Program-made: the position numbers and the translations under genes
Notes under the pieces: generated by a model
Database searches by the model: none
What the model was told of the DNA's origin: nothing
The model's input: the letters and a program-made list of their open reading frames with translations, nothing else
Assembly: GCA_947044405.1 (NCBI GenBank)
Contig: CAMRHE010000011.1
Location: forward strand, 8,139,501 to 8,203,500
Source: Leptodactylus fallax
Taxonomy: Eukaryota; Chordata; Amphibia; Anura; Leptodactylidae
Reading direction: 5' to 3'
Length of the DNA stretch: 64,000 bases
Shown: positions 2,484 to 46,120 of the stretch, in pieces
Layout of the letters: each line of letters opens with the position of its first letter
How positions within the stretch are numbered: position 1 is the stretch's first letter

Positions 2484-2489
2484 TCAAAG

Positions 2490-8337: not shown

Positions 8338-8738
8338 GATGGGCCAAAAGCTCTCCCCCCTCTCTCTCTCTCTTCACCACCAGCCCTTGGGAGATGGATT
8401 GACCAGCTTCACCTAGACAAGCTCCATATACCACCAGAGCATGCATAATAAGGCTTAAGTATAACTTTCTCTCTCTATCCATCTATCCACCCATCATCCA
8501 TCTATTATCTATCTATCTATTTATCTATCAGTCACCCTCTATTAATCTGTATTACTACTGCTGTGTTCCTTACAGAAAGGGTCAGTTAGTAAATTGTCCA
8601 GGGGTTGTATGTGTGTGGTTGTATGTGTGTGTGTATGTAGCGATATCTGTAGGTTTTTAATTGGGTTCTGTACTTATTGTATTGCACTGTGTTAATACTG
8701 TTTTGTATTATTCTATAACCTAGTTCCATCATATTAAT

Positions 8739-8744
8739 AATAAA
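8739..8744 (+). terminator. LTR polyadenylation signal
   Basis: AATAAA about 400 bp downstream of the TATA box. The same signal is in copy 2 (29327-29332 on the minus strand). Confidence 0.6.
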
Positions 8745-8942
8745 CGTATTTTATGATTAATATTGTGGGGTAAATTATCGTACATGCAAACCAGTCAAGG
8801 AAACAGATAAGTAGATATACCTAAGGAGAAAGGAGGGAAATTGGTGAATATTAATTAGTAGTAACACCCAGATCTCTCTAACATAATGATGAAACAAGTC
8901 AGAAGTGAGGAATATTAATTATTAAGATTCATCTCCTTAACA

Positions 8943-23444: not shown

Positions 23445-23455
23445 AAAGCATTTTT
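23445..23455 (-). repeat. Target-site duplication of nested LINE (3' side)
   Basis: AAAGCATTTTT, matching 45806-45816 on the far side of the whole nest. The right edge merges with the LINE poly-A tract. Confidence 0.8.
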
Positions 23456-23679
23456 TTTTCCCAATAAAAGTTTTATTGAAATTTTGCAAAAAGGGTGGCA
23501 TAACATAAACCACAATTGAAAATAGGGGGGAGGGGGAGGGAAGCAGGGGAACATTGGGGGAAACAACATCAGGGAAGTAAAGAAGGGGTAAAAGGGCAAG
23601 AGAACAAATAAATACTCTGACGCAGCAGTGTCCAACAGTAAATCCTAACAAAAAGGAGCATAAACAAGGCAAAACACTG

Positions 23680-26030
23680 TGAAGGCCTTCTCCGCATCCA
23701 GGGAAAGTAACATCATGGGGGTTGGGAGCGATGAGCATGATGGATCGCAGATAAGGCCCTCAAGGTATTATCACAGGCCTCCCTATGAGATATAAAGCCC
23801 ACCTGATCACGGTGCACCAGTCCTCCATATTTTGACCCAATGTTAGTGATAAGCTTGGCATAGAACTTTGCATCACTATTGATGGGGGATATGGGTCTAT
23901 AACTTGGGCAGAGCAGGGTATCTTTGCCCTCCTTAGGGAGTACAGTAACATGTGCGTGTAGGAAAGAGGGGGGAGGGAAAGGTGTGTCTGGTGACACAGA
24001 GTTGAAAGCTCGTAGCAGAAGGGGAGTTGAGGTCTGTTTGCAAGGTTTTGTAAAAACAGGCTGCAAATCCTCCGGGACCGGGGCTTTTGCCCATCTGTAG
24101 CAATGAGATGTCAAGTTCCAGTTCCTAAGCAGTAAAGGGAGTCTCTAGAAGGGCAATATCATCAGATGCAAGAGAGGGGATGGCCATATTTGCTATATAC
24201 TGGGGAAGGGGAGTAATGTATTGGGCTTCGGGTTAGCGGCTCGTGGGGAAGGAAGGCCATATAGAGAGCCATAATAGTCGCGAAACTCCATCGCTATGTC
24301 TGCATTGAGATTGGAGGTATCACCTGACGGGCGCTTGATGGCCATAATGTGAGAGGTGGCCTGTCACTCCCGGACTGCACACGCCAGTAGACACCCACGC
24401 CTTGTGCTTAAACAAGGACCTGATCTCCTGACGAGTGGCAGTCAGAGAGGCAAGAGTAGATTCCTGAAGGGTTTGTTTGTGCTGAGCCTCCAGAGTAGTA
24501 AAATCTTGGAGACAGTGGCGTAACTAGGAATGGCTGGGCCCCAAGGCGAACATTTGACATGACCCCAGACCCCAGAGTATAATGATCGGAGACCCAGGGG
24601 AGGATAGAAACATAGAAAACACTGCAACTTACCTCTCCCTCGCTCCGGTGCACTCCCGTGCGCTACCTCGGCCATCTTCAATGTCGGACCGGATCTTGCG
24701 CGATCCAGGCCGGCGTCGCGACGTATAATGACGTCGGCTGACGTCTGGGACGTCACCAAACAGGCCCGAAGCCTGCGGAGCGGCGGAGAGGTGAGTTACA
24801 GTGTTTTTTATGTTCGCTCACCTCCCCTGGACCTCCGATTGTTATACTCCGGGGTCTCAAAAGACCCCGGAGTATAACGATAGCAGTGATTGTGGGGTTC
24901 GCGGTAGCAACTGCCCCAGGGCTCCGGGCCCCGTAATGTTCCGGGCCCTGTGGCAGTCGTTACCACTGCTACCCCGGTAGTTACGCCCCTGCTTGGAGAA
25001 GTGAGTTGAATCTCAGAATCGCTTCCCTCTTGATTCTAGCCCCCTGTTTGATCAGAACACCTCTAAGGACACATTTCAGGGCTTCCCATTGTATAGGGGG
25101 AGCCGTAGTATCAGTAGAGTGATCCAGAACAAAATTGGAGACAGTGAGTTTGAGATCTGCCTGACATTGAGCATCAAGCAACAACGATTCATTGAATTTT
25201 CTAAGAATTGGCACGTTTGTCGCGGAGGGAGAAGCTTGAATGAGCAAAAGACAGGTGAGTGGTCAGAGAGGAAAGCTGAGCCTATCTTAGCCACCGACAC
25301 CTGTGGCAATAGAGCGTGAGAAATGAAAATGTAGTCTACCCTGCTATATGAACTGTGAGGATGGGACTAGAAAGTAAAATCTTTGTCAGCAGGAAAGAGA
25401 ATACGCCAGGCATCACACAGTAGCATAGAATGGAGCAACTTGCAGAGTTTGTTTAGCGCATTATAGGGTACATGTATTTTGCCTTCAGAGGTGTCTAGAA
25501 CAGAATTGAAGTCACTGCACAGAATATTGTGACCCCTAGAAAAGGATTGGAGGGTAGAGAGAGAGTGGAAATTAGGAAAGGGACCTGATTGGCGTTGGGG
25601 GAATATACATTAGCTATAGTTTATACTAACCCATAGATTTCGCAAATCTGGCGTTCTGATCTACCTGGGAGTCAAGTATCTTAACTGGTAGGTTTTTATT
25701 AAAAAAATATAGCTACCCCCTTGGACTTTCCCTGCGAAGTACTGCTATGTGATCACAGAGGGAAATAACGATTCTTGATCGTGGGCATGTGTGTCTCCAG
25801 AAAGTGTGTTTCTTGCAGACAAAGAATGTGAACCTTGCGCTTGTGAGCATCACATAAAATGTGGGAACGCTTCTATTTAATCCCTTGACATCGAAGGATG
25901 AGATAGTAATGTCTGCTATGTATAGCAAATGGGTAGGGCAGCGAGGATAAGACAGGTAGAAAAGGTAGGAGAGATGTAAACAGAAGATACCGATAAGAGA
26001 CCAGGGAAGGAAAAAGGAAGTCAAGAGGGA
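23680..26030 (-). pseudogene. LINE ORF2 remnant (endonuclease and partial RT)
   Basis: Minus-strand pieces: the endonuclease start (SFDVKGLNRS, 25900s), the endonuclease end with SDHSPV (about 25240), a linker with a WEALKCVLRGVLIKQGAR-type motif (about 25100-25050), then after the hAT insertion an RT block (SYRPISPINSDAKFYAK, then DQVGF, 23713-24114) ending at DAEKAF. Frames shift repeatedly and the RT core after DAEKAF is missing. It cannot encode an active enzyme. Confidence 0.8.
24513..24991. mobile_element. hAT-type MITE inserted in LINE ORF2
   Basis: Terminal inverted repeats CAGTGGCGTAACTA and TAGTTACGCCCCTG, with an exact 8-bp duplication CTTGGAGA (24505-24512, 24992-24999), which is diagnostic of hAT. 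The body contains an inverted AGACCCC/GAGTATAA module also found in two other elements of this window. No transposase. Confidence 0.92.
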
Positions 26031-26307
26031 AGAAGAGAAGAGAAACAGAGGGCAGAAAGGGCACCTTCAGTAGGTCTACAGGGTGGGAGCGCACGTCTCC
26101 AGACAATCCCACACAGCGGGATCCACACTATGTGGGGAAGAGGAAGGTGAATACGTGCCAGGCAATTATATATAAAGAGAAGTGAGTCAGAGAGAAAGAA
26201 AGCTACCCGGCCCTTATAGGAAAGCAGCTGAGAAGAAATGTGAATGGGGAATCTACACCACATGTACAATTATGAAAACAGGCAAATAATACAGGTAAAT
26301 TAAACTA

Positions 26308-26520
26308 GAGTCCCTGATAGCTTATCCATGTTGTGGAGTCAAAAGCTTATAACCTGACTTTAAATTCATCCATTTTTTTTTAGAAATGACTCATATGAAA
26401 GCTGAAACCCTCCCAAATGATTTTTTGGTTAAGAAAATAAATTGGCTTCACTGCTGAAATATTGATCATTTAATGAACATAGAAAGGTCAGATTTTGGCA
26501 AGACAAAAGTTTTATCGCAC
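26308..26520. repeat. Left terminal inverted repeat of nested Tc1
   Basis: Pairs with 43840-44054 over most of its length (AGCTTATCCATGTTGTGGA near 26318, then TTATAACCTGACTTTAAAT). Confidence 0.88.
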
Positions 26521-26620
26521 ACATAAAGTAATGTGAAAATCAAACCAATAAATCTGTTCAAAAACAAAGATATGTTTTATAATATTGGTGAATGAAGTTG
26601 TGGTGCTATTAGAGCCATAT

Positions 26621-27690
26621 TTAATATTTTGTGTGACTTCCATGAGCTTGAAGGACTGCATCCATGCGTTTCAACAATGATTCATACAATTTATTGATGA
26701 AGTCATCAGGAATAACAAAGAATGCAGTCTTACGTGCCTCCCAGAGTTCATCAAGATTCTTTGGTTTTGTCTGCCAAGCTTCCTCTTTCATCCTACCCCA
26801 AACATGCTCAATGATGTTCATGTCTGGTGACTGGGCTGGCCAGTCCTGGAGCACCTTGATCTTCTTTGCCTTGAGGAACTTTAATGTAGAGATGGATGTA
26901 TGAGATGGAGCACCATCCTGCTGCAAAATTTGACCCCTTTTATGATTGGGAATGTAAGAGGAAGCTAATACTTCTTGATATTTTAGGCTATTGATATTGC
27001 CTTCCACCTTGCAAATGTTTCGCACACCCCCATACTGAATGTAACCCCAGACCATGATCTTTCCACTACCAAACTTAACTGTTTTCTGGGTGTATCTTGA
27101 ATCCATACGGGCTCCAGTAGGTCTCCTGCAGTATTTGCGGTGGCTGTGGAGTAATTCAACTGAAGATGCATCTGAGAAATCCACCTTCTGCCACTTTTCC
27201 AGTGTACATCCATTTAGCAGGCTGTGGGCTTTGGCAAATGCCACACTTTTTTTAATTGCCTTTTGTTTAGTGCTGGCTTCTGGGCTCTGATTCGACCATG
27301 GAGGCCATTTCGAGACAGAATCCTACAAACTGTTCTAGTTGACACAGGGACTTGAGGTGACCAGGCCTGTTGGAGCTCTGCTGCAGTGGAAGAGGGGCTG
27401 GCTTTTGATTTTCTAACCAACAAACGTTCCTCCTGAGCAGTTGTCTTGCGGGGTCTGCCGGACCTGGGCTTGTCAAAAACATCTCCAGTCTGCTCAAATC
27501 TTTTTTTAATTCTTTGTACTTGACACAGAGACACATTAAAGGTGCCAGCCACCTCTGCAGTGGATCTGGTCTTCAGCCTCTTAATAATCAAGGCTTTGGT
27601 TGCAGGGTTGATTTTTGGCATGTTGTCAGAGGTGAAGTTGCAGTTCAAGTGAAGGTATGGGGTGCTGGAGTTCTTTTTATACACACCCAC
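26621..27690 (-). pseudogene. Tc1-like transposase (one frameshift)
   Basis: The N-terminal part, 27690-27214, has a helix-turn-helix DNA-binding region (Met at 27618, MPKINPATKALII) and the GRPRK AT-hook-like motif. The C-terminal part, 27244-26621, carries the DDE catalytic domain: first Asp in FSDAS, second in QQDGAPSH, third in SPDMNIIEHVW. The two parts overlap in different frames at the T7 run 27247-27253 (an A run on the coding strand). The enzyme would cut and paste at TA sites. Apart from this shift the frame looks complete, near the usual 340 residues. Confidence 0.9.
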
Positions 27691-28019
27691 TATTTAACCG
27701 ATCAATTAGTGAGCACAGGTGAGGCTTTAACTCTAGAAGTCCCAGAAATTTCGAGCTCCCCCTTGAAGTCCTGAAAGAGGGTCAAATGACCCTTAGTCCA
27801 AACTGACAACTCTGATGGCTCCAATTAGCATTTCCTTTCATTTGTAAATGTGGCCATTGTCTGAGGAATCTGCAGGGGGGAATTGTGTTGATCCACCTCA
27901 GGTCTTGTAAGAGAGTGTAAAGAAAAAAATGTAAGCTGCTCCTGAGTGTCTGCCCACCCCCCAGCTGCATTGTTGTGCTGGGAATATTTGCTAACACCTT
28001 AGCAAATTTGCATGCAGCC

Positions 28020-28920
28020 TTTTGTGCTGTGGGGGATGTGACTGCTTCTCAAAGTAGTCTGCGATTTGAAATCAAAGTACATCTGTAATGTCCTCCCATA
28101 TCTTGGCAAGGACCCCAGTCGTCCCAGCGGGGAGAGACTGTCCGAAACTGTAGTGATGAGGCTGATGGAATCATTCATGGACAAGGGCAGAACTGTAACC
28201 ACGAACAATTTCTTTACATCATTGTCACTTGCACAATGACTGCTTAGCCGGAAAACCACTATCCTCGGCACAGTCAACAAGAGTCGCCGGGAAATTCCTT
28301 AATCCGCTAGACAGATGGACCGCACTGAATTCACCACTCAGGTGTTTTCAACCACTGATGCCACACTGACAGTGTATGCACCCAAACGAAAGAAGGCCGT
28401 CTACATTCTCAGCAGCATGCACAGCGTGGTTGAGACTAAGGATACCAACAAAAGAAAGCCAAACACGGTCACACAATACAACCACACAAAGTGCGGTGTG
28501 GATGTAATGGACCAAATGGTGCGGGAGTACAGCCTGCATGCAGGAACACGGAGATGGCCATTCGCCGTGTTCTACAACATGATTGACATGGCAGCACTGA
28601 ATGCTCATGTTCTTTATCAGGCATGCACTGGGGTGCAGGAGAGACGGGTGGACTTCCTGGTTGAGTTTGCAAAAGAGTTAGGTGGCTCTCATGTGACTGA
28701 AAAGAAGGCACGCAAGGAGAAACTCCTTCGGCAACAACCTTCCACACCCAGCCCTGGCAAAAGGGCGAAGTGTCAGGTCAACCATCGATGCACGAACAAT
28801 TGTGCAACTGAGAGATGTGTTTACTGCTACAAATACACGTGTGGCAAATGTACCAGGGACATACCCAGGCAGTGGCAGGTATGTTCCGACAGTGCAGACA
28901 GACTGCTGAGTGAGTGCTGA
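28020..28920 (+). pseudogene. piggyBac transposase, C-terminal half (degraded)
   Basis: The open part at 28315-28920 (201 aa) includes GVDVMDQMVREYSLH, with the third catalytic Asp, and ends in a cysteine-rich zinc domain (CTNNC, CVYCYKYTCGKC), typical of piggyBac transposases. Upstream, 28020-28310 reads through shifted frames and stops. In the segment normally carrying the second catalytic Asp (TTxNFFTS near 28198) the residue is Asn. The N-terminal half is not recognisable. Inactive. Confidence 0.85.
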
Positions 28921-29069
28921 AATGCTAGTCACACAAGAAGGACATGCCACTCACACACACACACGCAGCCCCCCACAGCAGCCTATTGTAAATATGTGTG
29001 GAATTGTTTTATTCCTTGTATTTTTTTTATTATTTTCATAACAAAAATAAAAAGCATAGAAACAAATAA

Positions 29070-29074
29070 CAGTT
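29070..29074. repeat. ERV copy 2 target duplication (left)
   Basis: CAGTT, repeated at 41110-41114. A 5-bp duplication is produced by the retroviral integrase. Confidence 0.9.
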
Positions 29075-29109
29075 TGTTAAAGATGAATATTAATAATTAA
29101 TATTCATCA

Positions 29110-29127
29110 CTCCTGGCTGACTCGTCA
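29110..29127 (-). other. Fossil PBS-like sequence inside the LTR (3' LTR)
   Basis: On the coding strand TGACGAGTCAGCCAGGAG, preceded by TTAACATAA just as the working PBS is. It matches the recalled complement of the vertebrate tRNA-Arg(ACG) 3' end at 16 of 18 bases, both differences being transitions. Copied in the 5' LTR at 40028-40045. Confidence 0.6.
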
Positions 29128-29528
29128 TTATGTTAAGGGTGATGTTAACAATTACTATTTCCTCCCTTTTGACTTGTTTCACCATTAGGTATGAGAGATC
29201 TGGGTGTTACTACTAATTAATATTCACCAATTTCCCTCCTTTCTCCTTAGGTATATCTACTTATCTGTTTCCTTGACTGGTTTGCATGTACGATAATTTA
29301 CCCCACAATATTAATCATAAAATACGTTTATTATTAATATGATGGAACTAGGTTATAGAATAATACAAAACAGTATTAACACAGTGCAATACAATAAGTA
29401 CAGAACCCAATTAAAAACCTACAGATATCGCTACATACACACACACATACAACCCCTGGACAATTTACTAACTGACCCTTTCTGTAAGGAACACAGCAGT
29501 AGTAATACAGATTAATAAAGGGTGACTG

Positions 29529-29577
<49 letters not shown>

Positions 29578-29673
29578 GAATAGAGAGAGAGAAAGGTATA
29601 CTTAAGTCTTATTAAGCATGCTCTGGTGGTATATGGAGCTTGTCTAGGTGAAGCTGGTCAATCCATGGGGTCT

Positions 29674-29805
29674 GGTGAAGAGAGAAGATCAAGAGAGCTG
29701 GTGAAGAGAGAAGATCAAGAGAGCTGGTGAAGAGAGAAGATCAAGAGAGCTGGTGAAGAGAGAAGATCAAGAGAGAGCTGGTGAAGAGAGAAGATCAAGA
29801 GAGAG
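29674..29805. repeat. 26-bp tandem repeats in LTR
   Basis: About five units of GGTGAAGAGAGAAGATCAAG plus six bases, downstream of the TATA tract in the transcribed direction. The 5' LTR has the same array at about 40587-40718; copy 1 has no array. Confidence 0.85.
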
Positions 29806-30194
29806 AGAAAGGGCTTTTGGCCCATTATATATATGGCCCACAACTCCGCCCACCTAGATGTTGTCACTCCAATCAGGCTCTTGGTATTGTAATATAAGTT
29901 TAGATGCAATACTTCTTATGAGTCTTGGGATGGCGCTCTAACACTTAAAATTGATCCGTGGCCTAGGGCTAATGACCTACCTCCCCCATCTGCTCTGGGT
30001 CTGATTTAACATCACTATGGTGGCCTCATTAGCATATTCCATCTCATTATGTTAAACAAAAGACTTCCTGGCCCATGCGGGATGTCTGTTAGAAAACCGG
30101 TTTTGTAGCCTGCAGACAATAGCTCAGAAGTTCTGAATGGACAGCCAGATAAATATATATATATTAATGTCTGTGGTAAGCACTTCCCTTTACA

Positions 30195-30207
30195 ATCCCC
30201 CTGTTGT
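30195..30207 (-). promoter_or_regulatory. Polypurine tract, ERV copy 2
   Basis: Reads ACAACAGGGGGAT on the coding strand, directly upstream of the 3' LTR. Confidence 0.8.
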
Positions 30208-31311
30208 CGGGAACACGACAATGTAATTTGAGGAAGTGTTTGTTTGGTCGTTATTGCCCCCTCAGCCCTATTCATTCCTGGCAATGGTTCAGGATGGAGT
30301 GAAGTATAATTTGGATTTAGGTACCAAGACATCGATCGTTTCCAGGGACACTTTCCCACCTATGACTGTCGCCCAATATCCTTTGCTCACAGAAAACGTC
30401 TTTTGCGCGTCCTGATTTACGGTGTCAGTGATACTTTCTACGGTCCACCCCAATATGTCACACTGACCTGGACGGGAACATTTTTATCCATCCCACAGAT
30501 AGTCAGGTAAGACCTTTAAACCACAGTCCATTGTCACGGTACATGCAGCACCACCTTTTGGTCCGGACTGAAGCTCTCGCAGGGTTAGACCACCTTGCCA
30601 CATGACACCAACTGTCCTATAGGACCGCTACCTGTACTTAAGCACAGGTCACCAGTGAAGTTGTCACCGGCCTCCATGAACAGAAAAACCTGGACTTTTA
30701 TCAAGGCAGGTCTGTGAACCTGCATCTGAAATGATGTCTCAGAACCTAAAATCGAATTGTGGGGAGAGGCACTGCTTCCCATGTCCCCTGTACCTGACAT
30801 TCAATCCATCCATTATGAACCATACCATTTTATATGGCCGAGGTGGCAATTACCTTACAGTGTAGGGGTACCTTACCTGTCCCTAAGGATCCTTACACCC
30901 CTTTACCTAACAGAAATTAATGTAACATATATATATATATCCCACTCATCCACCAAACACACAAATTCCCACCCCCCTATAGATCAAGGCGATAAAAATA
31001 AAAGGATGTGCTGGTATTGGTGCACATAGAGACTCCTGCCACAAGAGCACGTGTTTCCTACTCATCCATAAACACATGAATCTTCAGACCCAGGTGTAGA
31101 TGGGAATTACACTAAAAGATGCAAATGCAAGTATGTCTATACACAAACACACTCAGTGTTCAGTGTGGGAGGCGTATGTTGTTGTACAGACCATAACAGG
31201 CACTTACACCTGAAGTGTCTATGTGCACACACAAAAATGCAAAATAATACAAGAATATGAAAATTACATTGAAAACATTATTTACAAGTTAAGGCTGGGA
31301 CTGTATTGGTA
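30208..31311 (-). other. ERV copy 2 region between env and 3' LTR
   Basis: 1.1 kb without a supported gene. A 71-codon frame at 30800-30585 corresponds to 7334-7549 of copy 1. Confidence 0.6.
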
Positions 31312-33987
31312 TCAAGTCCTTAGTCCCTGCTTTCGGGTAAGTTCGTGATGTACGGCCTGGCCCTGTTGAAGCTCACGGGTCAGGCCTTTTATCTTCCTAT
31401 AGATGAAGATCATTCCTATATACATAATGGCCACTAGGACGAGGAGGACTATGACTGGGTGTACAAGCAGATTGAAGAATGATGTTGCTTTGGGGCTATA
31501 TCCGAACAGACTCTCCCACCAAGATACGGCTGAGTCCTTCTCCAGGGCATGAACCATCTCTGTTATCTTTGACTGGTCATGTTTCAATAAGATGGTGGCC
31601 TGCTTTTCAGAGTCTTTGAGCTTCTCTATGACACTTTCCTCCTTATTGAAGTCTAGTAGCAGGTGTCTCAGTTTTCTGCCAAAACCAAGAGGGATCCTCT
31701 GGAGCCTTACAGGAGTATCTGGACGGATATCCAACCTCTTCTCTGGGGTAATCGGTGTTCTCCCCTTCTGCTCTGCTACATCGACACCTATAACGGGATA
31801 AAGGGTACAATATGCTCCTGGGAGGAGTTCACCTCTTTCGGTGCAGTTAGTTGTATAAATGGTATATGATACATTAACGGACTGGTACCAACACCAATAA
31901 CCTTGACCCAAGTACTTCAAACTAGATGGAGGTATTGAGCTGCTTTTCATCTCACAGAACCCCTCATTATCCCAACACTGGTGTCTGAGCACCCGATCAT
32001 GATCCCCTTGGCAGAGGATAGCATCCTCTTTCCTCCAACATCCATCTGTATCAAACAGATAAGGATGGCCGGTCTCATAGGTCAGGATATCTGAGGAGAG
32101 CTGTGGATGTAACACTGTTCTGTTATTCATCATTATACCTAGGTTGATAGCACTATACCCACGTCTCACGTTGCCAGAGACAGGTGCCAGGGATGAAGCA
32201 GTGCAAGTGAGATTATGGCACCCATGCCACTGAATGACCCACCAGTTAGTATGGTTGGCAGCAAAAGGAGTGATAAAAGGACTCACCCTTTGCTGGAGGT
32301 TAAAAGGGTAGTGTCCATTATACAGTGAGGACACAATATGTTTAAGGTTGCTGGAAAGTTCACCCTGCACCTGAGTACATGCCAGAGCAAGCTGAGCTCT
32401 ATCCTGTTCTTCCAGGAGACCCACGACTAATAGTCTAAACTTCTCTCGTAACGCAGAAGATAGGGAGCTAGTGGCATCTATATGTGAGTGTTGTAAATCC
32501 TCCAAAACATGATTTACATCAACCTGGGTCTTGAGGCCTTCCCCAGTATGTTTCGCCAGATTCCCGAGTTTGTTTCTCAGGACTTCCAGGTCCATAGTGT
32601 TCAGTGCCCCTATTCCCATTGCACCTCCTCCTAAACCCATGGCAATCAAATCCCTTCTCCCCCTGTACTTCCTGTATCTGGTAGCATCCTTCCTTACTTC
32701 TTGTCCCATCTCTACCCATCCTTTTATCATATCGATCTGATTCCTCACAAACTCCTCACATCTATGGTCCCAGTGGTCTACTCTAAAATCATCAACCGAA
32801 ATCCTCCAGGTATATAGGACGAATTTGGTTTTGGTGATGATTTTCCAGGGAGATGCTAACTGTGGAGCTATGGGATCAGCCATTTGATAGGTTGGGGCAT
32901 TACAGGAATCCCTGTGGGGTTTTACTGGCTGAAGAACTTCAGTTTCATAAGGGACCCTTACCACAGTCACACATACTTTACCTCTTCCTTTAAATGGATA
33001 CCATTGGTCACCTTCTCCAGTCTCTAATACGAGATTCCGGATGGGTTTAGTTGTGGAAAGATAAACCCACTGTGTAAATGTCCAACACCCCTCATCGACT
33101 GCCTCACAAAATGGCCATTTAAATGAACCATCAATATTGATAGCAAAGTTAATATCTCTGCCTCTGGGATCCTTCCAATCAGAAGATACATATCTATTCC
33201 GGTATTCCTCAGTCATAGGGGTCCCATCCATCCATACATCAATTATTGGAGAATCCACTCCGTTACAGACTATATCCCATCTCCATGGGTTAGAGTCTAA
33301 CATTACCATCTGAGTGTCTGGTTCCCAGTGTGCATAGGTGATGAAATAATGTCCTGTCACATCTGGTACACAAGCATCCCTCATAATGGTAATCATAAAA
33401 GATCGAATGGATGGAGATCCCTCCAGCTGAGTATACCTCTGATCCTTCGCATCAGCTCGTACCTTCAAAACTGTGGCTCTGTATAGGCCTTCAAGTTTTA
33501 CTGGGCCGCTCTGATTGTTCCATAATACTTGTCCAGATTTACTGCAGTTTAACTTTAAAATCAATATGCTGGTCCTTAAATAGTCCGTGGACACATGTCC
33601 TTGAGCATATTTGGATTCCCTAGTTATTACCATATGAGAATCCCTTAGCATACAGTACGCCTTCAGGGTGCCCTTTACTGGTATGGGTCTATCAAAGTAT
33701 GTCCTAACTCTTAAGCTATCCTGACTGGTATGTTTCAGAAAAGTGGCTTTTAGAATGTACCATCCACTGTACTCTGCCCCAGTGACATCTTCAGGACTCA
33801 GGACTCCTGCTTTGGTGCACAGCACCTTTGTTGTGTTTACTATCACTGGCCTATAAGGATGTAAGTGGGGATTTCTAGACACCCATCTTACTGATTTGAT
33901 AGCTGTTGGTTCTGTGATCTGGTAAAGAATAACATGATAATATGAAATGTTTTGATACACCTTTGACCTACTACCCCCCCCCTTCAC
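31312..33987 (-). CDS. env: Retroviral Env glycoprotein, ERV copy 2 (long open frame)
   Basis: Uninterrupted 891-codon frame for a membrane fusion glycoprotein. The surface subunit is about residues 1-444, with many N-x-S/T sites. A basic RGRR motif near residue 442 (about 32665-32654) is a likely furin site and is followed by a glycine-rich hydrophobic fusion-peptide-like stretch. The transmembrane subunit is long (about 446 residues), with an anchor near the end (IVLLVLVAIMYIGMIFIY) and a short tail. I see no CX6CC motif of gamma-type Env. The frame opens at a GTG with no signal peptide; the nearest ATG (34003) is in another frame across a C9 run (33974-33982 on the + strand), so the true N-terminus is uncertain or spliced. 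It lies 20 bp after the pol stop. Confidence 0.88.
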   Translation of the reverse strand: MKGGGSRSKVYQNISYYHVILYQITEPTAIKSVRWVSRNPHLHPYRPVIVNTTKVLCTKAGVLSPEDVTGAEYSGWYILKATFLKHTSQDSLRVRTYFDRPIPVKGTLKAYCMLRDSHMVITRESKYAQGHVSTDYLRTSILILKLNCSKSGQVLWNNQSGPVKLEGLYRATVLKVRADAKDQRYTQLEGSPSIRSFMITIMRDACVPDVTGHYFITYAHWEPDTQMVMLDSNPWRWDIVCNGVDSPIIDVWMDGTPMTEEYRNRYVSSDWKDPRGRDINFAINIDGSFKWPFCEAVDEGCWTFTQWVYLSTTKPIRNLVLETGEGDQWYPFKGRGKVCVTVVRVPYETEVLQPVKPHRDSCNAPTYQMADPIAPQLASPWKIITKTKFVLYTWRISVDDFRVDHWDHRCEEFVRNQIDMIKGWVEMGQEVRKDATRYRKYRGRRDLIAMGLGGGAMGIGALNTMDLEVLRNKLGNLAKHTGEGLKTQVDVNHVLEDLQHSHIDATSSLSSALREKFRLLVVGLLEEQDRAQLALACTQVQGELSSNLKHIVSSLYNGHYPFNLQQRVSPFITPFAANHTNWWVIQWHGCHNLTCTASSLAPVSGNVRRGYSAINLGIMMNNRTVLHPQLSSDILTYETGHPYLFDTDGCWRKEDAILCQGDHDRVLRHQCWDNEGFCEMKSSSIPPSSLKYLGQGYWCWYQSVNVSYTIYTTNCTERGELLPGAYCTLYPVIGVDVAEQKGRTPITPEKRLDIRPDTPVRLQRIPLGFGRKLRHLLLDFNKEESVIEKLKDSEKQATILLKHDQSKITEMVHALEKDSAVSWWESLFGYSPKATSFFNLLVHPVIVLLVLVAIMYIGMIFIYRKIKGLTRELQQGQAVHHELTRKQGLRT

Positions 33988-34007
33988 CCAACTCTATACT
34001 CATGACC

Positions 34008-37668: not shown

Positions 37669-37671
37669 TCA
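37663..37671 (-). promoter_or_regulatory. Gag-pol UGA readthrough site (copy 2)
   Basis: Gag stop UGA then CGG. The Met of the protease LDTGA segment is exactly 108 nt (36 codons) downstream of the stop's first base, so the two frames are the same. Every codon between is open. Confidence 0.7.
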
Positions 37672-39696
37672 GTCAATCTGCATCAGATTCTCAGTAGGTA
37701 CCTCTGAGGTACGTACTGCCACTTGTGGTTGCTGAGTTTCAACATTCTGTGCAGACTTATGATGTTCTACACCTAATGTTCTATCCTCTGGTCTATCAGG
37801 GGCATTTACAAGTGCCACACGTTTCAGTGCCTGTTCTGGCAAATGTCCCTGATTGCTATCTGTCTGTTTCCCAGCTTGTTTGGCATAATTAGGCTTCATC
37901 TTGAAACCATTATTATTGCCATTTTTCTCTGGGTTTGTACGATTGCGAACTACTTGAGGGCAGTTTCTTTTAATGTGTCCAACCTGTGAACACAGAAAGC
38001 ATCGTATGTCTCCCATCTTTTCTGCTGGAGGAGCTGTGGGGTAGACAGACATGTGTGGCTTAGTGTGGTGTCCACGTTCATCTTGTGATTTGACATGGAC
38101 CTTTCCACGCTCCCTGATTTTCACAGACTTTTTATTGCGCAGTAGATCTTGTCTATACTGTTCAATAATCATGGCTGCATCAGTGAGCGTTGGCTCCCTT
38201 GCTGCACTTAGCCTAATTGCGGTGTCAAGGTATGGGAATTTGTACACAAACATGCGAACCATGCCTTGTGGGACTCCTATACCTTGATCCTTTGTGATCT
38301 TCCTGTACATTGCTTCAAACCGACCACAGAGGGACGAAGGTTCGTCCTGTAAGGTGGGTTTGAATTTGTTCAGGATTTCTGGAGTAACATCCCAATGTCC
38401 TGTTGCCAGTTTCATGAGTATTGAAAGGCGTTCTTCCTCATCATAAAATAGGCCATTCTTGGGACTTGTTCTCTCTGTTGCCTCATACCTTTGGTTGAGG
38501 TGTGTAGGCAACCACAATTTAAACAGCTCCATACGATATTCTGGAGGCACAGAATATTTCCTGCAATGTCCTTCAAACATATCACAGGCTGTAAATGGAT
38601 CTGTATTAGGGTCATACTTAGGGATCTCTTTGCAGATCCGTAACAGGAAATTTATCTTTTCCATGTTGTTATGGCTAGGATAAAATTCCACTGACCTTTC
38701 AGGACGTGTAGGTAGGTTGGAAGCCGTATGTACAGTTTCCCATCCACTACTTAGTCCCCAATTTGAGTCCTGTCCATGGAGGCGTCCGCTGTCTCTCCTC
38801 TCCAAAGGTGTTGGAGAGAATTGTAGTGCACGCTCCACTGGACTCCTACTATCACAAAATGGACTAATGGATCTCTGATCCACAGTCCCCTCCTGTGCCA
38901 TTCCTGAGACACAAATCTGTTTAGTTGGCAAGGGTACCGTGCTGTTAGTTCTAGGCCGTGACAAGTCAGAGATGATCTGCTGCAAATTCGCAATGATTTG
39001 CGAGTTTGCCGCTTGTTCCTCTCTTAGTGTCACTAACATTGCTTCTGTGGAAGTAATTTTACTTCTAAACTGATTGTTCTCAGTGTATAATCGAAGGAGT
39101 TCTTTGTCCATGTCAGAATAATAATTCTCTTTGTCAGAGAGTTTGGATTCCAACACACAAATCTCCTTTCCTCTCTCAATTATACAAAGTGCCTCATCTT
39201 TCAATTGAGTTTCTAACATGTGAATCTGCTTGACATTGTCTACACAACAATGACAGTGGGGGTTTGCATTGTTAGCTCGCTCCACTGTCCCTTTCATGTT
39301 TGCTAGGATCTCAGCATGCTCTGGCTTCCAGATTGTATCCTCAAAAGTATATACAAGTTTTGCTAACATTTGTAATCTTTTGGAAGTTTTGTTAAAAACT
39401 GTCCGTTTACTAATACAGTTTTTATCATGAGCATAGGCCTGATCCAGCAAAGCAGACCACAACATTTCTCCTGATTTATAGGTTGTGGGTGGTACTGGGT
39501 TGAATGTACTGTGTTTAGCTAGGTGTTTTAATGTTGAGAAATCCATACTTACTTTTCCTGCTGTAATCTTGGTCACCGTTGTCTTCCTACTTGTCTTTTG
39601 CTGCTTGAAAAAGTATCCTTTTCGTACCGGAAAGCCTTTTCCCGACCAGCTGGACTTCTCCTGAAGAACCTTGACTTTGATATTACAGAGGCACAA
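37669..39696 (-). CDS. gag: Retroviral Gag polyprotein, ERV copy 2
   Basis: 675-codon intact frame. Coiled-coil-like region, capsid-like region and a single CCHC knuckle (CFLCSQVGHIKRNC) as in copy 1. It differs from copy 1 by a few residues, a replaced tract near residue 34 (KTSRK) and absence of the short insertion near residue 275. A splice-donor-like AAAGTAAGT lies just before the internal Met of MDFSTLK (about 39555). It ends at UGA 37671-37669. Confidence 0.92.
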   Translation of the reverse strand: MCLCNIKVKVLQEKSSWSGKGFPVRKGYFFKQQKTSRKTTVTKITAGKVSMDFSTLKHLAKHSTFNPVPPTTYKSGEMLWSALLDQAYAHDKNCISKRTVFNKTSKRLQMLAKLVYTFEDTIWKPEHAEILANMKGTVERANNANPHCHCCVDNVKQIHMLETQLKDEALCIIERGKEICVLESKLSDKENYYSDMDKELLRLYTENNQFRSKITSTEAMLVTLREEQAANSQIIANLQQIISDLSRPRTNSTVPLPTKQICVSGMAQEGTVDQRSISPFCDSRSPVERALQFSPTPLERRDSGRLHGQDSNWGLSSGWETVHTASNLPTRPERSVEFYPSHNNMEKINFLLRICKEIPKYDPNTDPFTACDMFEGHCRKYSVPPEYRMELFKLWLPTHLNQRYEATERTSPKNGLFYDEEERLSILMKLATGHWDVTPEILNKFKPTLQDEPSSLCGRFEAMYRKITKDQGIGVPQGMVRMFVYKFPYLDTAIRLSAAREPTLTDAAMIIEQYRQDLLRNKKSVKIRERGKVHVKSQDERGHHTKPHMSVYPTAPPAEKMGDIRCFLCSQVGHIKRNCPQVVRNRTNPEKNGNNNGFKMKPNYAKQAGKQTDSNQGHLPEQALKRVALVNAPDRPEDRTLGVEHHKSAQNVETQQPQVAVRTSEVPTENLMQID

Positions 39697-39971
39697 ATGG
39701 ATTTCTCAGTCTCCCAGCGAGTTGTTTGTGGAGGAAACAGACAATTGTTAATACCTTCAGATAAATACAAATAAACAATAGGTTCACTGTTATTAATTAT
39801 TTTAAGTGAAGCTTTAAGCAAACTGGGTTAGCCGTGCAAACTTCAATCTGGGCATACAGTGTAACTCAACACTTCAGTGTGTACCAATATTACCTGTCCA
39901 CGCCCCTCCACTTGATAGTTCACGGTATAACACAGTTTTGCCAGAAGACAACACGCAAAAATATTAAAACA

Positions 39972-39989
39972 GTACGGGCCGGCTCGCCA
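39972..39989 (-). promoter_or_regulatory. Primer binding site, ERV copy 2
   Basis: On the coding strand TGGCGAGCCGGCCCGTAC, three bases after the 5' LTR. Its first nine bases match the recalled complement of tRNA-Arg(ACG) CCA end; overall about 14 of 18 match. Priming by tRNA-Arg is inferred. Confidence 0.65.
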
Positions 39990-39992
39990 TTA

Positions 39993-40445
39993 TGTTAAGG
40001 ATGAATATTAATAATTAATATTCATCACTCCTGGCTGACTCGTCATTATGTTAAGGGTGATGTTAACAATTACTATTTCCTCCCTTTTGACTTGTTTCAC
40101 CATTAGGTATGAGAGATCTGGGTGTTACTACTAATTAATATTCACCAATTTCCCTCCTTTCTCCTTAGGTATATCTACTTATCTGTTTCCTTGACTGGTT
40201 TGCATGTACGATAATTTACCCCACAATATTAATCATAAAATACGTTTATTATTAATATGATGGAACTAGGTTATAGAATAATACAAAACAGTATTAACAC
40301 AGTGCAATACAATAAGTACAGAACCCAATTAAAAACCTACAGATATCGCTACATACACACACACATACAACCCCTGGACAATTTACTAACTGACCCTTTC
40401 TGTAAGGAACACAGCAGTAGTAATACAGATTAATAAAGGGTGACT

Positions 40446-40492
<47 letters not shown>

Positions 40493-41109
40493 GAATAGAG
40501 AGAGAGAAAGGTATACTTAAGTCTTATTAAGCATGCTCTGGTGGTATATGGAGCTTGTCTAGGTGAAGCTGGTCAATCCATGGGGTCTGGTGAAGAGAGA
40601 AGATCAAGAGAGCTGGTGAAGAGAGAAGATCAAGAGAGCTGGTGAAGAGAGAAGATCAAGAGAGCTGGTGAAGAGAGAAGATCAAGAGAGAGCTGGTGAA
40701 GAGAGAAGATCAAGAGAGAGAGAAAGGGCTTTTGGCCCATTATATATATGGCCCACAACTCCGCCCACCTAGATGTTGTCACTCCAATCAGGCTCTTGGT
40801 ATTGTAATATAAGTTTAGATGCAATACTTCTTATGAGTCTTGGGATGGCGCTCTAACACTTAAAATTGATCCGTGGCCTAGGGCTAATGACCTACCTCCC
40901 CCATCTGCTCTGGGTCTGATTTAACATCACTATGGTGGCCTCATTAGCATATTCCATCTCATTATGTTAAACAAAAGACTTCCTGGCCCATGCGGGATGT
41001 CTGTTAGAAAACCGGTTTTGTAGCCTGCAGACAATAGCTCAGAAGTTCTGAATGGACAGCCAGATAAATATATATATATTAATGTCTGTGGTAAGCACTT
41101 CCCTTTACA
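39993..41109 (-). repeat. 5' LTR of ERV copy 2
   Basis: 1117 bp, nearly identical to the 3' LTR. TATA tract near 40741-40749, GATA microsatellite about 40446-40491, 26-bp repeats about 40587-40718, fossil PBS-like stretch 40028-40045. Confidence 0.93.
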
Positions 41110-41114
41110 CAGTT
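41110..41114. repeat. ERV copy 2 target duplication (right)
   Basis: CAGTT, matching 29070-29074. Confidence 0.9.
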
Positions 41115-41453
41115 GTTCTTTTGTATATTTACATTTTTGTATATTTAGATTCAAGTCAATGGGTGCAGAAAAAAAAAAAAAAATCGCAAAAAAAATCACA
41201 GCTACTTGCGATATTTTTGTGATCTGTCCCATTGGTCATATAGATCACTCCTCTGGGATTTTTTCGCACGAAAAAAATCGCACAAAAAAAAAAAAAATCG
41301 CAGGAAAATCGCACCTATGAAAAAAAATCGCACGAAAAAAAAATCGCAGGTGTGCTTGGTGCCATTGAAATACATTGGCAAATCGCAGAAAAAAATTGCA
41401 TCGCATTGTGATGCGATTTTCGCGCAATTTTTTTTTCGCTAGTGTGCTTGAGG
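41115..41453. other. piggyBac interior with AAAAATCGCA low-complexity block
   Basis: No gene. Repeated poly-A/TCGCA motifs between 41165 and 41440 ending in GCTAGTGTGCTTGAGGCC. May be part of another small element, but I could not define its left end. Confidence 0.5.
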
Positions 41454-41461
41454 CCTTAGAC

Positions 41462-43435
41462 CAGGGGTCGGCAACCTATGGCACGCGTGCCACTCTTGGC
41501 ACGCGAGGCTTATTCCCCTGGCACGGCAGCGGACTCCTCACCCAGCAGTTTCGATCGGACCAAACACGGCCGAAACAAAACTGCTATTATTATACTGTGG
41601 GGTCTCTTCAGACCCCCCGAGTATAATAAGCGGAGCCCCCGGGGAGATGATCAAACATAAAAAACAATGTACTCACTATTCCACGCTCCGCAGCCGCTCT
41701 GTACTCTTCGGGCGCTTCTGCCTGCAGGGGCCACTATAGAGCATAATACTGTGTGCAGGGACCACTATGGGACATATACCGTGTGCAGGGGCCACTATGG
41801 GACATATACCGTGTGCAGGGGCCACTATGGGACATATACCGTGTGCAGGGGCCACTATGGAGCATAATACCGTGTGCAGGGACCACTATGGGACATATAC
41901 CGTGTGCAGGGGCCACTATGGAGCATAATACCGTGTGCAGGGGCCACTATGGGACATAATACCGTGTGCAGGGACCGCTATGGGACATATACCGTGTGCA
42001 GGGGCCACTATGGGACATATACCGTGTGCAGGGGCCACTATGGGACATATACCGTGTGCAGGGGCCACTATGGAGCATAATACCGTGTGCAGGGGCCACT
42101 ATAGAGCATAATACCGTGTGCAGGGACCACTATGGGACATATACCGTGTGCAGGGGCCACTATGGAGCATAATACCGTGTGCAGGGGCCACTATGGAGCA
42201 TAATACCGTGTGCAGGGGCCACTATGGAGCATAATACTGTGTGCAGGGGCCACTATGGAGCATAATACCGTGTGCAGGGACCGCTATGGGACATATACCG
42301 TGTGCAGGGGCCACTATGGAGCATAATACCATGTGCAGGGGCCACTATGGAGCATAATACCATGTGCAGGGGCCGCTATGGGACATATACCGTGTGCAGG
42401 GGCCACTATGGGACAAATACTGTGTGCAGGGGCAGCTATGGGACAAATACCGTGTGTAGGGGCCGCTATGGGACATAATACCGTGTGCAGGGGCCGCTAT
42501 GGGACAAATACCGTGTGCAGAGGACGCTATGGGACATAATACCGTGTGCAGGGGCCACTATGGAGCATAATACCATGTGCAGGGGCCGCTATGGGACAAA
42601 TACTGTGTGCAGGGGCAGCTATGGGACAAATACTGTGTGTTGGGGCCGCTATGGGACATAATACCGGGCAGGGGCCGCATGGGACAAATACCGGTGCAGG
42701 GCCGCTATGGGACATAATACCGTGTGCAGGGGCCGCTATGGGACATATACCGTGTGCAGGGTCTGCTATGGGACATATACGGTGTGTAGGGGCCGTTATG
42801 GGACATATTGCTGTGTGCAGGGGCCGCTATGGGACAAATACTGTGTGCAGGGACTGCTATGGGACAAATACTGTGTGCAGAGGCAGCTATGGGACAAATG
42901 CCGTGTGCAGAGGCAGCTATGGGACATATACCATGTTGAAGGGGCCGCTATGGGACATAATACCGTGTGCAGGGACCACTATGGGACATTATTCTGTATA
43001 ACGGTGTGTTTTCTATATTAAGGATGTGTTTTTGCACAGAAAACTCCGGCTTTGTTTTTTTTTGTGCAAAAATGCACCAGTTTTACATTGAATGAAAAAG
43101 TTCCAAATATAGCTGCATCCAGATACATAGTGTGTATTCACCATAAGGATGCCGCCATACGGGGCTCCTGGACACAATAAATTTACCACTAATTGGGGGC
43201 TGCACATGGACTTTCATTGCTTCTAATCAGAAAGTACAGGAGTGTCCCAGGAAATAGCAGTAAACGCATGTGTCCTAAAGCATCTGGTGGCAGCACTTCT
43301 GTGTTATGGTTTGTGGTATATGACTTTAGTTTAGGGGTCGTCAGACTTACAATTATTGACCGGCACTCCGAGTACCTAATCTTTGATTTTTTTATTAAAA
43401 TCGGCACGCCGAACAAAAAAGGTTGCCTACCCCTG
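41462..43435. mobile_element. hAT-type element with internal minisatellite
   Basis: Ends CAGGGGTCGGCAACCT and AGGTTGCCTACCCCTG (the right end as read on the + strand is GGTTGCCTACCCCTG), inverted, with an exact 8-bp duplication CCTTAGAC (41454-41461, 43436-43443). The left part shares the AGACCCC/GAGTATAAT module with the MITE at 24513. Most of the element is a 30-31-bp array (41724-42990). No transposase, so non-autonomous. It is inserted in piggyBac DNA next to the ERV. Confidence 0.9.
41724..42990. repeat. 30/31-bp minisatellite (about 41 units)
   Basis: Head-to-tail units built on GTGCAGGGGCCACTATGG, in two forms: one with GGGACATATACC (30 bp) and one with GGAGCATAATACC (31 bp). Units drift toward the right (GCAGCTATGG, GCCGCTATGG). 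The open frames in this stretch are by-products of the repeat. Confidence 0.95.
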
Positions 43436-43839
43436 CCTTAGACAAATGCTTCTGGTCATTACTCACAGCTGTACCTTGCTCTAAAATTTCTAATTCTATT
43501 TAAAATATATAAAAAATGATTAATTGTTTCAGTGCTTTTTTGCTCAAATAAAACTAAACTTAATACAATATGTATAGTCTTTATATTATCAAATACAATA
43601 AACTGAATAGAACTAACTAGACACTAAATGGCTAAACTCAATGGAAAACAACAACCTCCTGTGGTGTGACAGTAATGGCCTTAATTACAGAACAAAAGAC
43701 GGTGATTATAGGATGTTAGATAAAATCCTTCAGGTCATTCGACCCGTCTCTGGGTTCCAAAGGTAGAAATGTTAAATGACCCCTCTCTGGGACTTCTAGT
43801 GTTAAACTAGGATTGGGTGCATTATATGAGAAGGCGACA

Positions 43840-44054
43840 AAACTTTTGTCTTGCCAAAATCTGACCTTTCTGTGTTCATTAAATGATCAATATTTCAGCA
43901 GTGAAGTCAATTTATTTTCTTAACCAAAAAATCATTTGGGAGGGTTTCAGCTTTCATATGAGTCATTTCTAAAACCAATGGATGAATTTAAAGTCAGGTT
44001 ATAAGCTTTTGATTCCACAACATGGATAAGCGACAGAACTTCTGTCAGGGACTG
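43840..44054. repeat. Right terminal inverted repeat of nested Tc1
   Basis: Complement of 26308-26520, ending TTCTGTCAGGGACTG before TA. Confidence 0.88.
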
Positions 44055-44114
44055 TATAGTGTAACAATAGCAGGCAAAAGTCCAGTAGGGGAGAATCACC
44101 TAAATGAAAGCAGT

Positions 44115-45726
44115 TCAAGTCGGACGATCTCGGTCTGGAGCCGGTCTCCGTCTACGGCGAGGTCTCTGGGACCTGTGCGGAGTAAGGTCACATTCTTCGG
44201 TGGGGGCCCGTGGTTGCAGGAGGGCTCCAGGATGATCAGGGTCGTCCAGTAATGAGTCCCATGCTGGAAAACAGATAGATGGAAGGCCAAGACATCCGAG
44301 GAAGTCCAGGAGGCCACTTGGAGAATTGAGGGAGAGTAGTTTGTCTTTCATTCGGACCTGAAGAGCGAATGGGAAACCCCAGCGGTAGGGAATCCCATGC
44401 TTCTGGAGAAGAGCAAGCAGGGGTTTCAGCGCCGCCCGTTGATGCAGAGTATGCCTGGAGAGATCCAGAAAGATGGAGAGTGGAGCACCATCAAAGTCAA
44501 TAGTCTTAAGTCTCCTGGCTTTGAGCATAATCTCCTCTTTCACATCCCGTGGTTTCTCGGGGTCCTAGCTGCGAGGTCTAAGCGCATGATGCACACGGTC
44601 AATCTCTATAGGACTGTCAGGGAATCTCCCCAGGAGAGAGTTAAAAATACCAGTGAGAGTGGGCACCAAGTCTGCAGACTGCGTGGCTTCAGGCAGGCTG
44701 TGGATCCTAATATTATTGCGGTGGTTTCTATATTGTCCATTTGGGAAATTATCTTATGGTAGTGAGCCGTATGGGCAGAGGAGAAGAGATTCAGGTTCTG
44801 GGGAGAAGTGGAAGTAGAGGACTGAGACTGCTCCAATGCCGCCACTCATTGTTGTAAGACCATATGTCAGATTTGACCACCTGTAGGTGTTGGTGCCACG
44901 CTCGCTTCAGGTCATAGGCTACATCGTCCACGTCCGTTTTGCTGGGGAGCAGGGCGAGCAGGGCTTGTAGTTCCGGATTCCCCTGAAGGGTGTGAACCAC
45001 TTCCTCAGTTGGTGGCAAGTGAGATACAAAAGATGGTTGCACAATGTGGTTGGCGGAGGAAGCAGGATGGGATCTTGGCAGTTTCTTGCAGGTAACAAGT
45101 GGCTCGGCTTCATCCCCAGAGGACATGTCAGACTGAAACTGAGGAGGTATCTCGCCGGAGCCCAGGCCCCGACTGGACAGCCAAAACAGGGTTTTTTGGG
45201 GCTGGAACCCCAATCAACATCTCTGGAGTACCTTGCAGGGTGAGAGATGCCTAATTTGAAGGAAGGTGGAGTGATTGGCAGGCCTGGGGGGCTTTCCCAT
45301 CCCCCCCAGTAGCCTCAGAAGACTTAGAGGCTGTATTAGCAGTAGGGATCAGCAGCTCCCAGTTTGCCTCTGATCACTGCAGGGAGAGGGAAGATGGCCA
45401 CTTGGGGCCCACAGATGGTATGGGAGAGGAGGATAATGGAGCTGGGAGGTCCGGTGGAAGAGTTGTTTGGAGGGAGGATTGGCGCTTGCAGGGAGAAGAG
45501 GCACAAAGGAGAACACAGCGCTTTTCTGCTGTGCAGGAGGGAGAATATGTGTCTGCAGCACTGGTTGTGCCTGCGCCTCCAGGCCAGCCCCGCTATCTGA
45601 TGACCTCCGCAGGTCCCCGAGGGGGAGAAAATAGTTAGATATTGGGCCCTCCGTGATTGTGGAGGGAGCAGGGTCCCCTACCTGCTTTCTGGCTCGGGTC
45701 TTGCCCATATCGTCAGCCGGATTCAA
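44115..45726 (-). pseudogene. LINE ORF1 of the outer nested LINE (frameshifted)
   Basis: The start is near 45708 (MGKTRARK, then a basic, proline-rich region), followed by a middle coiled-coil-like part (QMDNIE, 44700s) and a C-terminal domain at 44543-44115 with HGIPYRWGFPF near 44400, typical of L1/Tx1 ORF1. At least four frame pieces (45726-45349, 45213-44791, 44845-44606, 44543-44115). It belongs to the LINE whose ORF2 is at 26030-23680; the Tc1 insertion fell between the two ORFs. Confidence 0.8.
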
Positions 45727-45805
45727 CCCTTAATAAAGGGCATAGAGGAGAGCTGCTAGTATGTGCTGCCCTGCCGGGATCATGCCAAGCCTCGTCCCCC
45801 CGAAC

Positions 45806-46120
45806 AAAGCATTTTTACTGCACAGTGAAAGCTGTATAAACAAAACCTGTAAGAATATGGTGGTTCTGCATATATTTTTTTCAATTCCAACTCATTCTGA
45901 ATTTTTTTTCCTTCTTCCCAGTACATTGTATAGAATAATAATTGGTAGCAGGAACTCTTGCCCAAAAAAGTCCTTAACAAAACATTTTTCACTACCGGAA
46001 TTGTCTTGTCAGTAAAAAATTGCTGTATTGCACAAGTGAAAGAGTTAACTGTCTGTGTAAGCAGCATCAACAGAAGACGCACAGATTCCCCCAGTCTCCC
46101 ACTGTCTATGAACCTGTCCT
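45806..46120. other. Dispersed repeat, right half, beginning with the LINE target duplication
   Basis: Starts with AAAGCATTTTT (45806-45816), the second copy of 23445-23455. Continues the A/T-rich repeat interrupted by the LINE. No gene. Confidence 0.45.

What the first reader, a model, noticed from the sequence alone, without database searches (positions are those of the whole stretch)
23445..45816. Four-level nest of different transposon classes with every target duplication preserved
A minus-strand LINE (11-bp duplication AAAGCATTTTT) contains a Tc1-like element (TA), which contains piggyBac (TTAA), which contains a full retrovirus (CAGTT) and a hAT element (CCTTAGAC). A second hAT MITE (CTTGGAGA) sits in the LINE too, and the LINE itself appears to have landed in an older dispersed repeat. 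Removing each layer restores the layer below. This gives a relative chronology of five mobile DNA classes at one locus: repeat, LINE, Tc1, piggyBac, then ERV and hAT.
Basis: seen in the sequence. Interest (0 to 1): 0.75.

Follow-up and report, generated by a model that had tools for sequence, protein, structure and literature searches.

The report
Four-deep transposon nest in a frog
In what looks like frog DNA, several kinds of jumping gene have landed one inside another, each leaving its exact landing scar, so the order of arrival can be read like layers of sediment; the case is unusually clean but of a well-known kind.

Summary
All six insertions carry exact target-site duplications: an internally deleted L1-type LINE (11 bp), a hAT-type MITE (8 bp), a Tc1-like element (TA), a piggyBac (TTAA), a 12-kb endogenous retrovirus (5 bp) and a hAT-like element (8 bp). 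Two of the six joints were tested directly: the LINE target rejoins into an older repeat with a relative elsewhere in the window, and LINE ORF2 is restored across the MITE with exactly one duplication copy. A third has indirect support: L1 ORF1 and ORF2 relatives flank the Tc1 in the right order and strand. The piggyBac, retrovirus and inner hAT joints fall in non-coding DNA and rest on duplications and terminal repeats. The chronology is a partial order: repeat, LINE, Tc1, piggyBac, then retrovirus and hAT; MITE versus Tc1 and its guests, and retrovirus versus hAT, are not ordered. The LTRs differ by 1 mismatch and 3 gap columns, so the retrovirus is recent. A possible extra layer sits in the piggyBac. 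Nested transposons are well known; this is a tidy member of a known kind.

The parts
22995..23444 (.). left part of the older dispersed repeat that the LINE hit
   Evidence: joined with the right flank, aligns across the joint to window 48653-48130 (minus)
45817..45943 (.). right part of the same older repeat
23445..23455 (.). LINE target duplication, left copy (AAAGCATTTTT)
45806..45816 (.). LINE target duplication, right copy
23456..45805 (-). L1-type LINE with all its guests; own sequence 4114 bp; ORF1 relative at 44115-44564, ORF2 remnants at about 25950-23645 (ends by eye), reverse transcriptase cut short after the LDAEKAF motif
24505..24999 (.). hAT-type MITE (24513-24991) with CTTGGAGA duplications
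26306..26307 (.). Tc1 duplication TA, left
44055..44056 (.). Tc1 duplication TA, right
26308..44054 (-). Tc1-like element with its guests; own length 1672; TIRs about 225-235 bp; transposase in two overlapping ORFs 26621-27690
   Evidence: Pfam DDE_3 and HTH_Tnp_Tc3_2
27727..27730 (.). piggyBac duplication TTAA, left
43802..43805 (.). piggyBac duplication TTAA, right
27731..43801 (+). piggyBac-like element with its guests; own length 2049 (includes the candidate extra layer); a C-terminal transposase ORF at 28315-28920
   Evidence: Pfam DDE_Tnp_1_7; PDB 6x67 residues 400-509
29070..29074 (.). provirus duplication CAGTT, left
41110..41114 (.). provirus duplication CAGTT, right
29075..41109 (-). 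endogenous retrovirus, 12035 bp; LTRs 29075-30194 and 39993-41109; ORFs gag 37669-39696, RT 35741-37459, RNase H-integrase 34653-35744, integrase piece 34292-34729, putative env 31312-33987
   Evidence: env named by position and motifs only
41145..41460 (.). candidate extra layer in the piggyBac: CpG-rich fold-back stretch between TTAGA 41145-41149 and 41456-41460
   Evidence: not proven
41454..43443 (.). hAT-like element (41462-43435) with CCTTAGAC duplications; contains a 30-31-bp minisatellite 41723-42989 (41.7 copies)

Best explanation
Successive independent insertions built the nest. An L1-type LINE entered an older repeat by target-primed reverse transcription (11-bp duplication, TTTTT/AC context on the strand opposite to the LINE). 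A Tc1-like element then cut and pasted into a TA between the LINE's two ORFs, a piggyBac into a TTAA between the Tc1's TIR and its transposase gene, and later a retrovirus integrated (5-bp duplication) and a hAT-like element inserted (8-bp duplication) into the piggyBac. At a time after the LINE that cannot be placed, a hAT-type MITE entered LINE ORF2. Shown: boundaries, duplications, TIRs or LTRs, protein identities, frame restoration at the MITE, continuity of the target repeat. Inferred: the transposition mechanisms (from family knowledge) and continuity at the Tc1, piggyBac, provirus and inner hAT joints.
For: Exact duplications at six of six insertions. Target repeat: joined flanks score 232 against the relative at 48653-48130, left alone 137, right alone 104; best of 200 simple shuffles 59 and 49; the halves end 17 bases apart in the relative, 8 bases apart in the joined flanks. 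MITE: with one duplication copy the ORF2 frame runs through, the 0- and 2-copy joins shift frame; of 7 relatives aligned (of 18 found), 6 align without a gap over the joint, and in 4 of the 7 the right half aligned alone also lands directly behind the left half. LINE sides: an ORF2 segment hits LINE-1 ORF2 proteins first (5 of 6 listed, E 0.022-0.057); the right side hits LINE-1 ORF1 proteins first (3 of 19 listed, E 0.012-0.021). Transposase and retroviral domains. LTR pair: 1116 identities, 1 mismatch, 3 gap columns.
Against: No other copy of the Tc1, piggyBac, MITE or hAT showed up in the window's self-comparison and no frog genome could be searched, so three joints are untested beyond short duplications and termini. 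LINE ORF1 pieces and endonuclease pieces gave no Pfam hit; the RT hit of the LINE (19.1 bits) is below Pfam's cut-off of 29.6; the PDB E-values for both LINE sides are weak, and chymotrypsin inhibitors follow at E 0.043 on another stretch of the ORF1 piece. In one search one of the 7 relatives (P0134) needs gaps near the MITE joint, and in 3 of 7 (P0133, P0134, P0135) the right half alone aligns best elsewhere, with weak scores of 28-31. The piggyBac TIR match is no better than the best shuffle by score.
Confidence: 0.95

Rival explanations
1. The nest is one level deeper: a fold-back, CpG-rich repeat (about 41150-41455) entered the piggyBac with a TTAGA duplication before the hAT landed on its right edge.
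For: TTAGA on both sides; 16 CpG in 339 bases against 1 in 149 and 3 in 358 in the neighbouring piggyBac pieces and 11 in 584 in the left piece; DNA fold z-score -2.84, 1 of 100 shuffles as good; arm alignment score 43 against a maximum of 38 in 500 simple shuffles.
Against: A 5-base match between zones of 51 and 69 bases is expected often by chance, and the same scan also gave T-run matches of 5-6 bases; the arms are largely A/T runs; no second copy in the window by self-BLAST with low-complexity filter or by its two end motifs with up to 3 mismatches.
Confidence: 0.5
2. Parts of the nest moved together: for example, the piggyBac carried the hAT or the provirus when it entered the Tc1, so the order piggyBac then provirus would not date events at this locus.
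For: Nesting orders who is inside whom; it does not show that the inner insertion happened here. Moving a composite is possible in principle.
Against: With both guests inside, the composite would be 16071 bp, far above normal piggyBac sizes (recalled); the near-identical LTRs make the provirus recent.
Confidence: 0.07
3. Assembly error or rearrangement joined unrelated fragments that mimic nesting.
For: The window holds a second copy of the same retrovirus in the opposite orientation, the kind of repeat that can mislead assemblies.
Against: Such a join would not give matched duplications at all six insertions or restore a reading frame.
Confidence: 0.02

Closest known systems
Nested transposon clusters in Drosophila melanogaster (PMC1794594, passages read)
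   Same: Serial insertion of elements of different classes into each other; order read from nesting.
   Different: There 263 of 294 nests have path length one, 25 two and 6 three; here the longest path is four with the target repeat as the outermost layer, three without it, with every duplication intact.
TE defragmentation and interruption chronology methods (REANNOTATE PMC2672092, TinT PMC3014933, interruption analysis PMC2517846; search listing and abstract openings only)
   Same: Use nested or interrupted elements to order activity of families.
   Different: Genome-wide methods; this is one locus checked to the base.
XtERV-S, class III frog retrovirus (PMC8278194; abstract and first of three parts of the Results read)
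   Same: Anuran provirus with gag, pol and env.
   Different: XtERV-S: 8012 bp, 705-bp LTRs, 530-aa gag without Cys-His box, YIDD, env motifs up to residue 441 with CX6CC. Here: 12035 bp, 1.12-kb LTRs, 675-aa gag with a CCHC knuckle, YVDD, an 891-aa env ORF without CX6CC.
Foamy-like endogenous retroviruses of amphibians and fish (PMC5512871; passages read)
   Same: The RT's best solved relatives are listed as Pr125Pol, which I recall as foamy virus Pol (172 bits; other retroviral RTs follow at 168 and 161 bits).
   Different: In the passages read only pol was found in Xenopus tropicalis; no tree was built here, so membership is open.

Membership tests
L1-clade LINE | ORF1p and ORF2p relatives in order on one strand | tested here: met
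   weak PDB E-values, strong to the Xenopus tropicalis relative P0130 (E 1.7e-85, 39% over 76%)
L1-clade LINE | A-rich 3' tail and a target duplication at a TTTT/A-like site | tested here: met
   site consensus recalled
L1-clade LINE | complete reverse transcriptase (a working copy) | tested here: not met
   RT ends after LDAEKAF and runs straight into the 3' end; a deleted copy of the family
Tc1/mariner | TA duplication, TIRs, DDE and HTH transposase | tested here: met
   transposase split over two ORFs
piggyBac | TTAA duplication and DDE_Tnp_1_7 transposase | tested here: met
   only a C-terminal ORF found
hAT (inner element, 41462-43435) | 8-bp duplication and short CAG..CTG TIRs | tested here: met
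   15 of 16 TIR bases; score 27, best of 300 shuffles 20
hAT (MITE, 24513-24991) | 8-bp duplication and short CAG..CTG TIRs | tested here: met
   13 of 14 TIR bases; score 23, best of 300 shuffles 21
hAT (both) | hAT transposase | not tested
   no profile search inside these elements; no ORF of 120 aa or more lies in the MITE, and the one in the inner element (42546-43001) lies almost wholly in the minisatellite
Endogenous retrovirus | paired LTRs, gag, RT, RNase H, integrase, short duplication | tested here: met
   the two rve (integrase core) hits are below Pfam's cut-off, the zinc-binding domain is above it
Foamy-like (spuma) retrovirus | phylogenetic placement with spumaviruses | not tested
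   only pairwise scores
Foamy-like (spuma) retrovirus | env related to foamy env | tested here: inconclusive
   sequence search of PDB: none at E up to 1; profile search: only two ubiquitin hydrolase chains at E 0.41

The most novel reading that the evidence does not exclude
The innermost provirus belongs to an undescribed retroviral lineage (foamy-leaning RT, CCHC gag, an env family with no solved relative by sequence) that has spread among distantly related frogs, and the nest, one level deeper if the fold-back layer is real, places its arrival after three other element families and an older repeat at one locus.
Probability: 0.3. Interest if true: 0.45.

Novelty: new member of a known kind. 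Interest (0 to 1): 0.22.

Why it matters
It is a clean, base-level record of the order in which several mobile-DNA classes inserted in one frog lineage, with the youngest retroviral layer datable from its LTRs. That is useful as a test case for nested-repeat annotation, and it offers stepwise presence/absence markers for related frogs. It changes no principle.

Tried and rejected
Own-genome search for other copies of the LINE: five identical requests did not complete, so no whole-genome copies were compared. Pfam: one search took 10 of the 15 ORFs; one search took 10 of the 72 stop-to-stop ORFs and gave one sub-threshold hit (DUF1970, E 0.048); one search gave none. PDB search with the Tc1 N-terminal ORF found nothing at E up to 0.001. 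PDB searches with the env ORF and its family profile found no envelope relative. Literature: 'nested transposable elements' with 'frog genome' gave 0 papers; a six-term search with 'amphibian' and 'nested' gave 8, none with a title on nests in frogs and none opened; broader searches gave known methods and the Drosophila survey (25 listed of 957 and of 120). A search on hAT duplication consensus listed 8 of 19 papers, none opened. For the provirus, (11 of 12 and 10 of 108 papers listed) gave XtERV-S and foamy-like papers, neither shown to match; that is no proof that it is undescribed. The RT search (only the 7997 candidates sharing most words were scored) gave 44% identity over 91% at best apart from shorter matches (46% over 41%; 82% over 10% in a Bufo ALP1-like protein); the tool excludes proteins over 1001 aa for this query, so longer pol models could not appear. 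I considered and dropped the idea that the LINE is two unrelated pieces, because ORF1 and ORF2 relatives are in the right order and strand between one pair of duplications.
Full report
Observation. The window has no N. Its proteins point to a frog: 9 of 9 env relatives bear frog names, and the best LINE ORF2 relative is from Xenopus tropicalis. The species was not identified. The six duplications were checked to the base and all are exact.

LINE. It runs on the minus strand, 23456-45805, with 4114 bp of its own. The A-rich tail abuts the left duplication, and the empty site reads TTTTT/ACTG on the opposite strand, as expected for L1-type target-primed reverse transcription (consensus recalled). 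A piece right of the Tc1 (44115-44564) has LINE-1 ORF1 proteins as its first three PDB hits (E 0.012-0.021), with chymotrypsin inhibitors behind at E 0.043 on another stretch. ORF2 pieces lie left: a segment hits LINE-1 ORF2 proteins (5 of 6 listed, E 0.022-0.057), and a frame mosaic finds 18 relatives, best E 1.7e-85. Pfam is thin here: a sub-threshold RT hit, nothing for ORF1 or the endonuclease pieces. The reverse transcriptase stops after LDAEKAF and runs into the 3' end, so the copy is internally deleted as well as frameshifted. Whether the loss came before or after insertion is unknown.

Target repeat. The joined flanks align to 48653-48130 (minus strand): score 232 against 137 and 104 for the halves; simple shuffles reached at most 59 and 49 (200 each). 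The halves end 17 bases apart in the relative and 8 apart in the joined flanks, so the match runs across the site. Much of the left part is A/T-rich and gapped, so the support is best near the joint.

MITE in the LINE. Removing 24513-24991 and one duplication copy leaves one open frame across the joint; the 0- and 2-copy versions shift frame, as an 8-bp change must. Of the 18 LINE relatives I aligned 7 around the joint (P0130-P0136): 6 pass it without a gap; P0134 needs gaps. Aligned alone, the right half lands directly behind the left half in 4 of 7; in P0133, P0134 and P0135 it lands elsewhere with weak scores of 28-31. This is the strongest single test in the nest.

Tc1 in the LINE. TA at 26306 and 44055; TIRs of 212 identities, 9 mismatches and 17 gap columns; own length 1672; transposase domains in two ORFs. 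It lies between the ORF1 and ORF2 relatives, in non-coding LINE sequence, so no frame test is possible there.

piggyBac in the Tc1. TTAA at 27727 and 43802. The 16-base termini differ at one position. By score alone the TIR match only equals the best of 300 shuffles, but it is in register at both exact ends. A C-terminal transposase ORF remains, matching PDB 6x67 residues 400-509 (E 3.2e-15).

Provirus in the piggyBac. 29075-41109, minus strand, CAGTT duplications, LTR ends TG and CA. The LTRs have 1116 identities, 1 mismatch and 3 gap columns. With a recalled amphibian rate near 0.8e-9 per site per year, one substitution means roughly half a million years, with an upper bound near 3 million; the rate is from no call. 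Domains: CCHC gag, RT, RNase H, integrase split over two ORFs, and an 891-aa env ORF, so called from its place and motifs. The RT scores best with entries named Pr125Pol (recalled as foamy virus), by a small margin over other retroviral RTs (172, 168 and 161 bits). Env has 9 relatives: 7 at 73-82% identity (Engystomops 82% over 94% of the query, Bufo 77% over 98%, Xenopus laevis 76% over 71%), the other two at 49% and 44%. PDB offers none. A second copy of the same family lies at 1-8942 on the other strand, with stretches missing; 97.7% identical over its longest block and 86.2-98.3% in the other blocks over 300 bases.

hAT-like element in the piggyBac. 41462-43435, CCTTAGAC duplications, 15 of 16 TIR bases, and a minisatellite of 41.7 copies of 30-31 bp. 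Neither this element nor the MITE was tested for a transposase by profile.

Order. Strict: repeat, LINE, Tc1, piggyBac, then provirus and hAT. Not ordered: MITE against Tc1 and everything inside it; provirus against hAT. Nesting orders containment; that each inner element arrived at this locus, not inside a moving host element, is inference.

A possible further layer. The stretch 41150-41455 is CpG-rich for its neighbourhood and folds back (z -2.84), with TTAGA on each side. If real, the hAT landed on its right edge and the path to the hAT gains a level. Chance is not excluded.

Setting. In Drosophila melanogaster 263 of 294 nests have path length one, 25 two and 6 three (PMC1794594, passages). 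Here the path is three counted from the LINE and four counted from the target repeat. DNA transposons, LINEs and LTR elements take up a large part of anuran genomes (PMC10324214, passages), so such depth is no great surprise there (inference). Two searches showed no study of nests in frog genomes by title, which does not show that none exists.

Verdict. A real, very clean nest; ordinary in kind.

Noticed in passing
1-8942: A second copy of the same retrovirus family on the plus strand, cut off by the window start and with stretches missing, 97.7% identical over its longest block, with a tandem repeat at 7020-7206.
   Followed up: partly
41145-41460: CpG-rich fold-back stretch with TTAGA on both sides inside the piggyBac: possible unreported layer.
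   Followed up: partly
24773-24887 and 41580-41693: The two hAT-type elements share a 116-column module at 80% in inverted orientation; by eye, similar text at about 46860-47030 and 47330-47790.
   Followed up: no
41723-42989: A 30-31-bp minisatellite of about 42 copies makes up 1267 of the 1974 bp of the inner hAT-like element.
   Followed up: no
31312-33987: An 891-aa env ORF with 9 frog relatives, 7 of them at 73-82% identity, Xenopus laevis included, with no Pfam hit and no PDB relative; may mean a retrovirus that crossed between distant frogs.
   Followed up: partly
23645-23767: The LINE's reverse transcriptase is cut after LDAEKAF and runs straight into the 3' end: an internal deletion in a copy that keeps its ORF1.
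   Followed up: no
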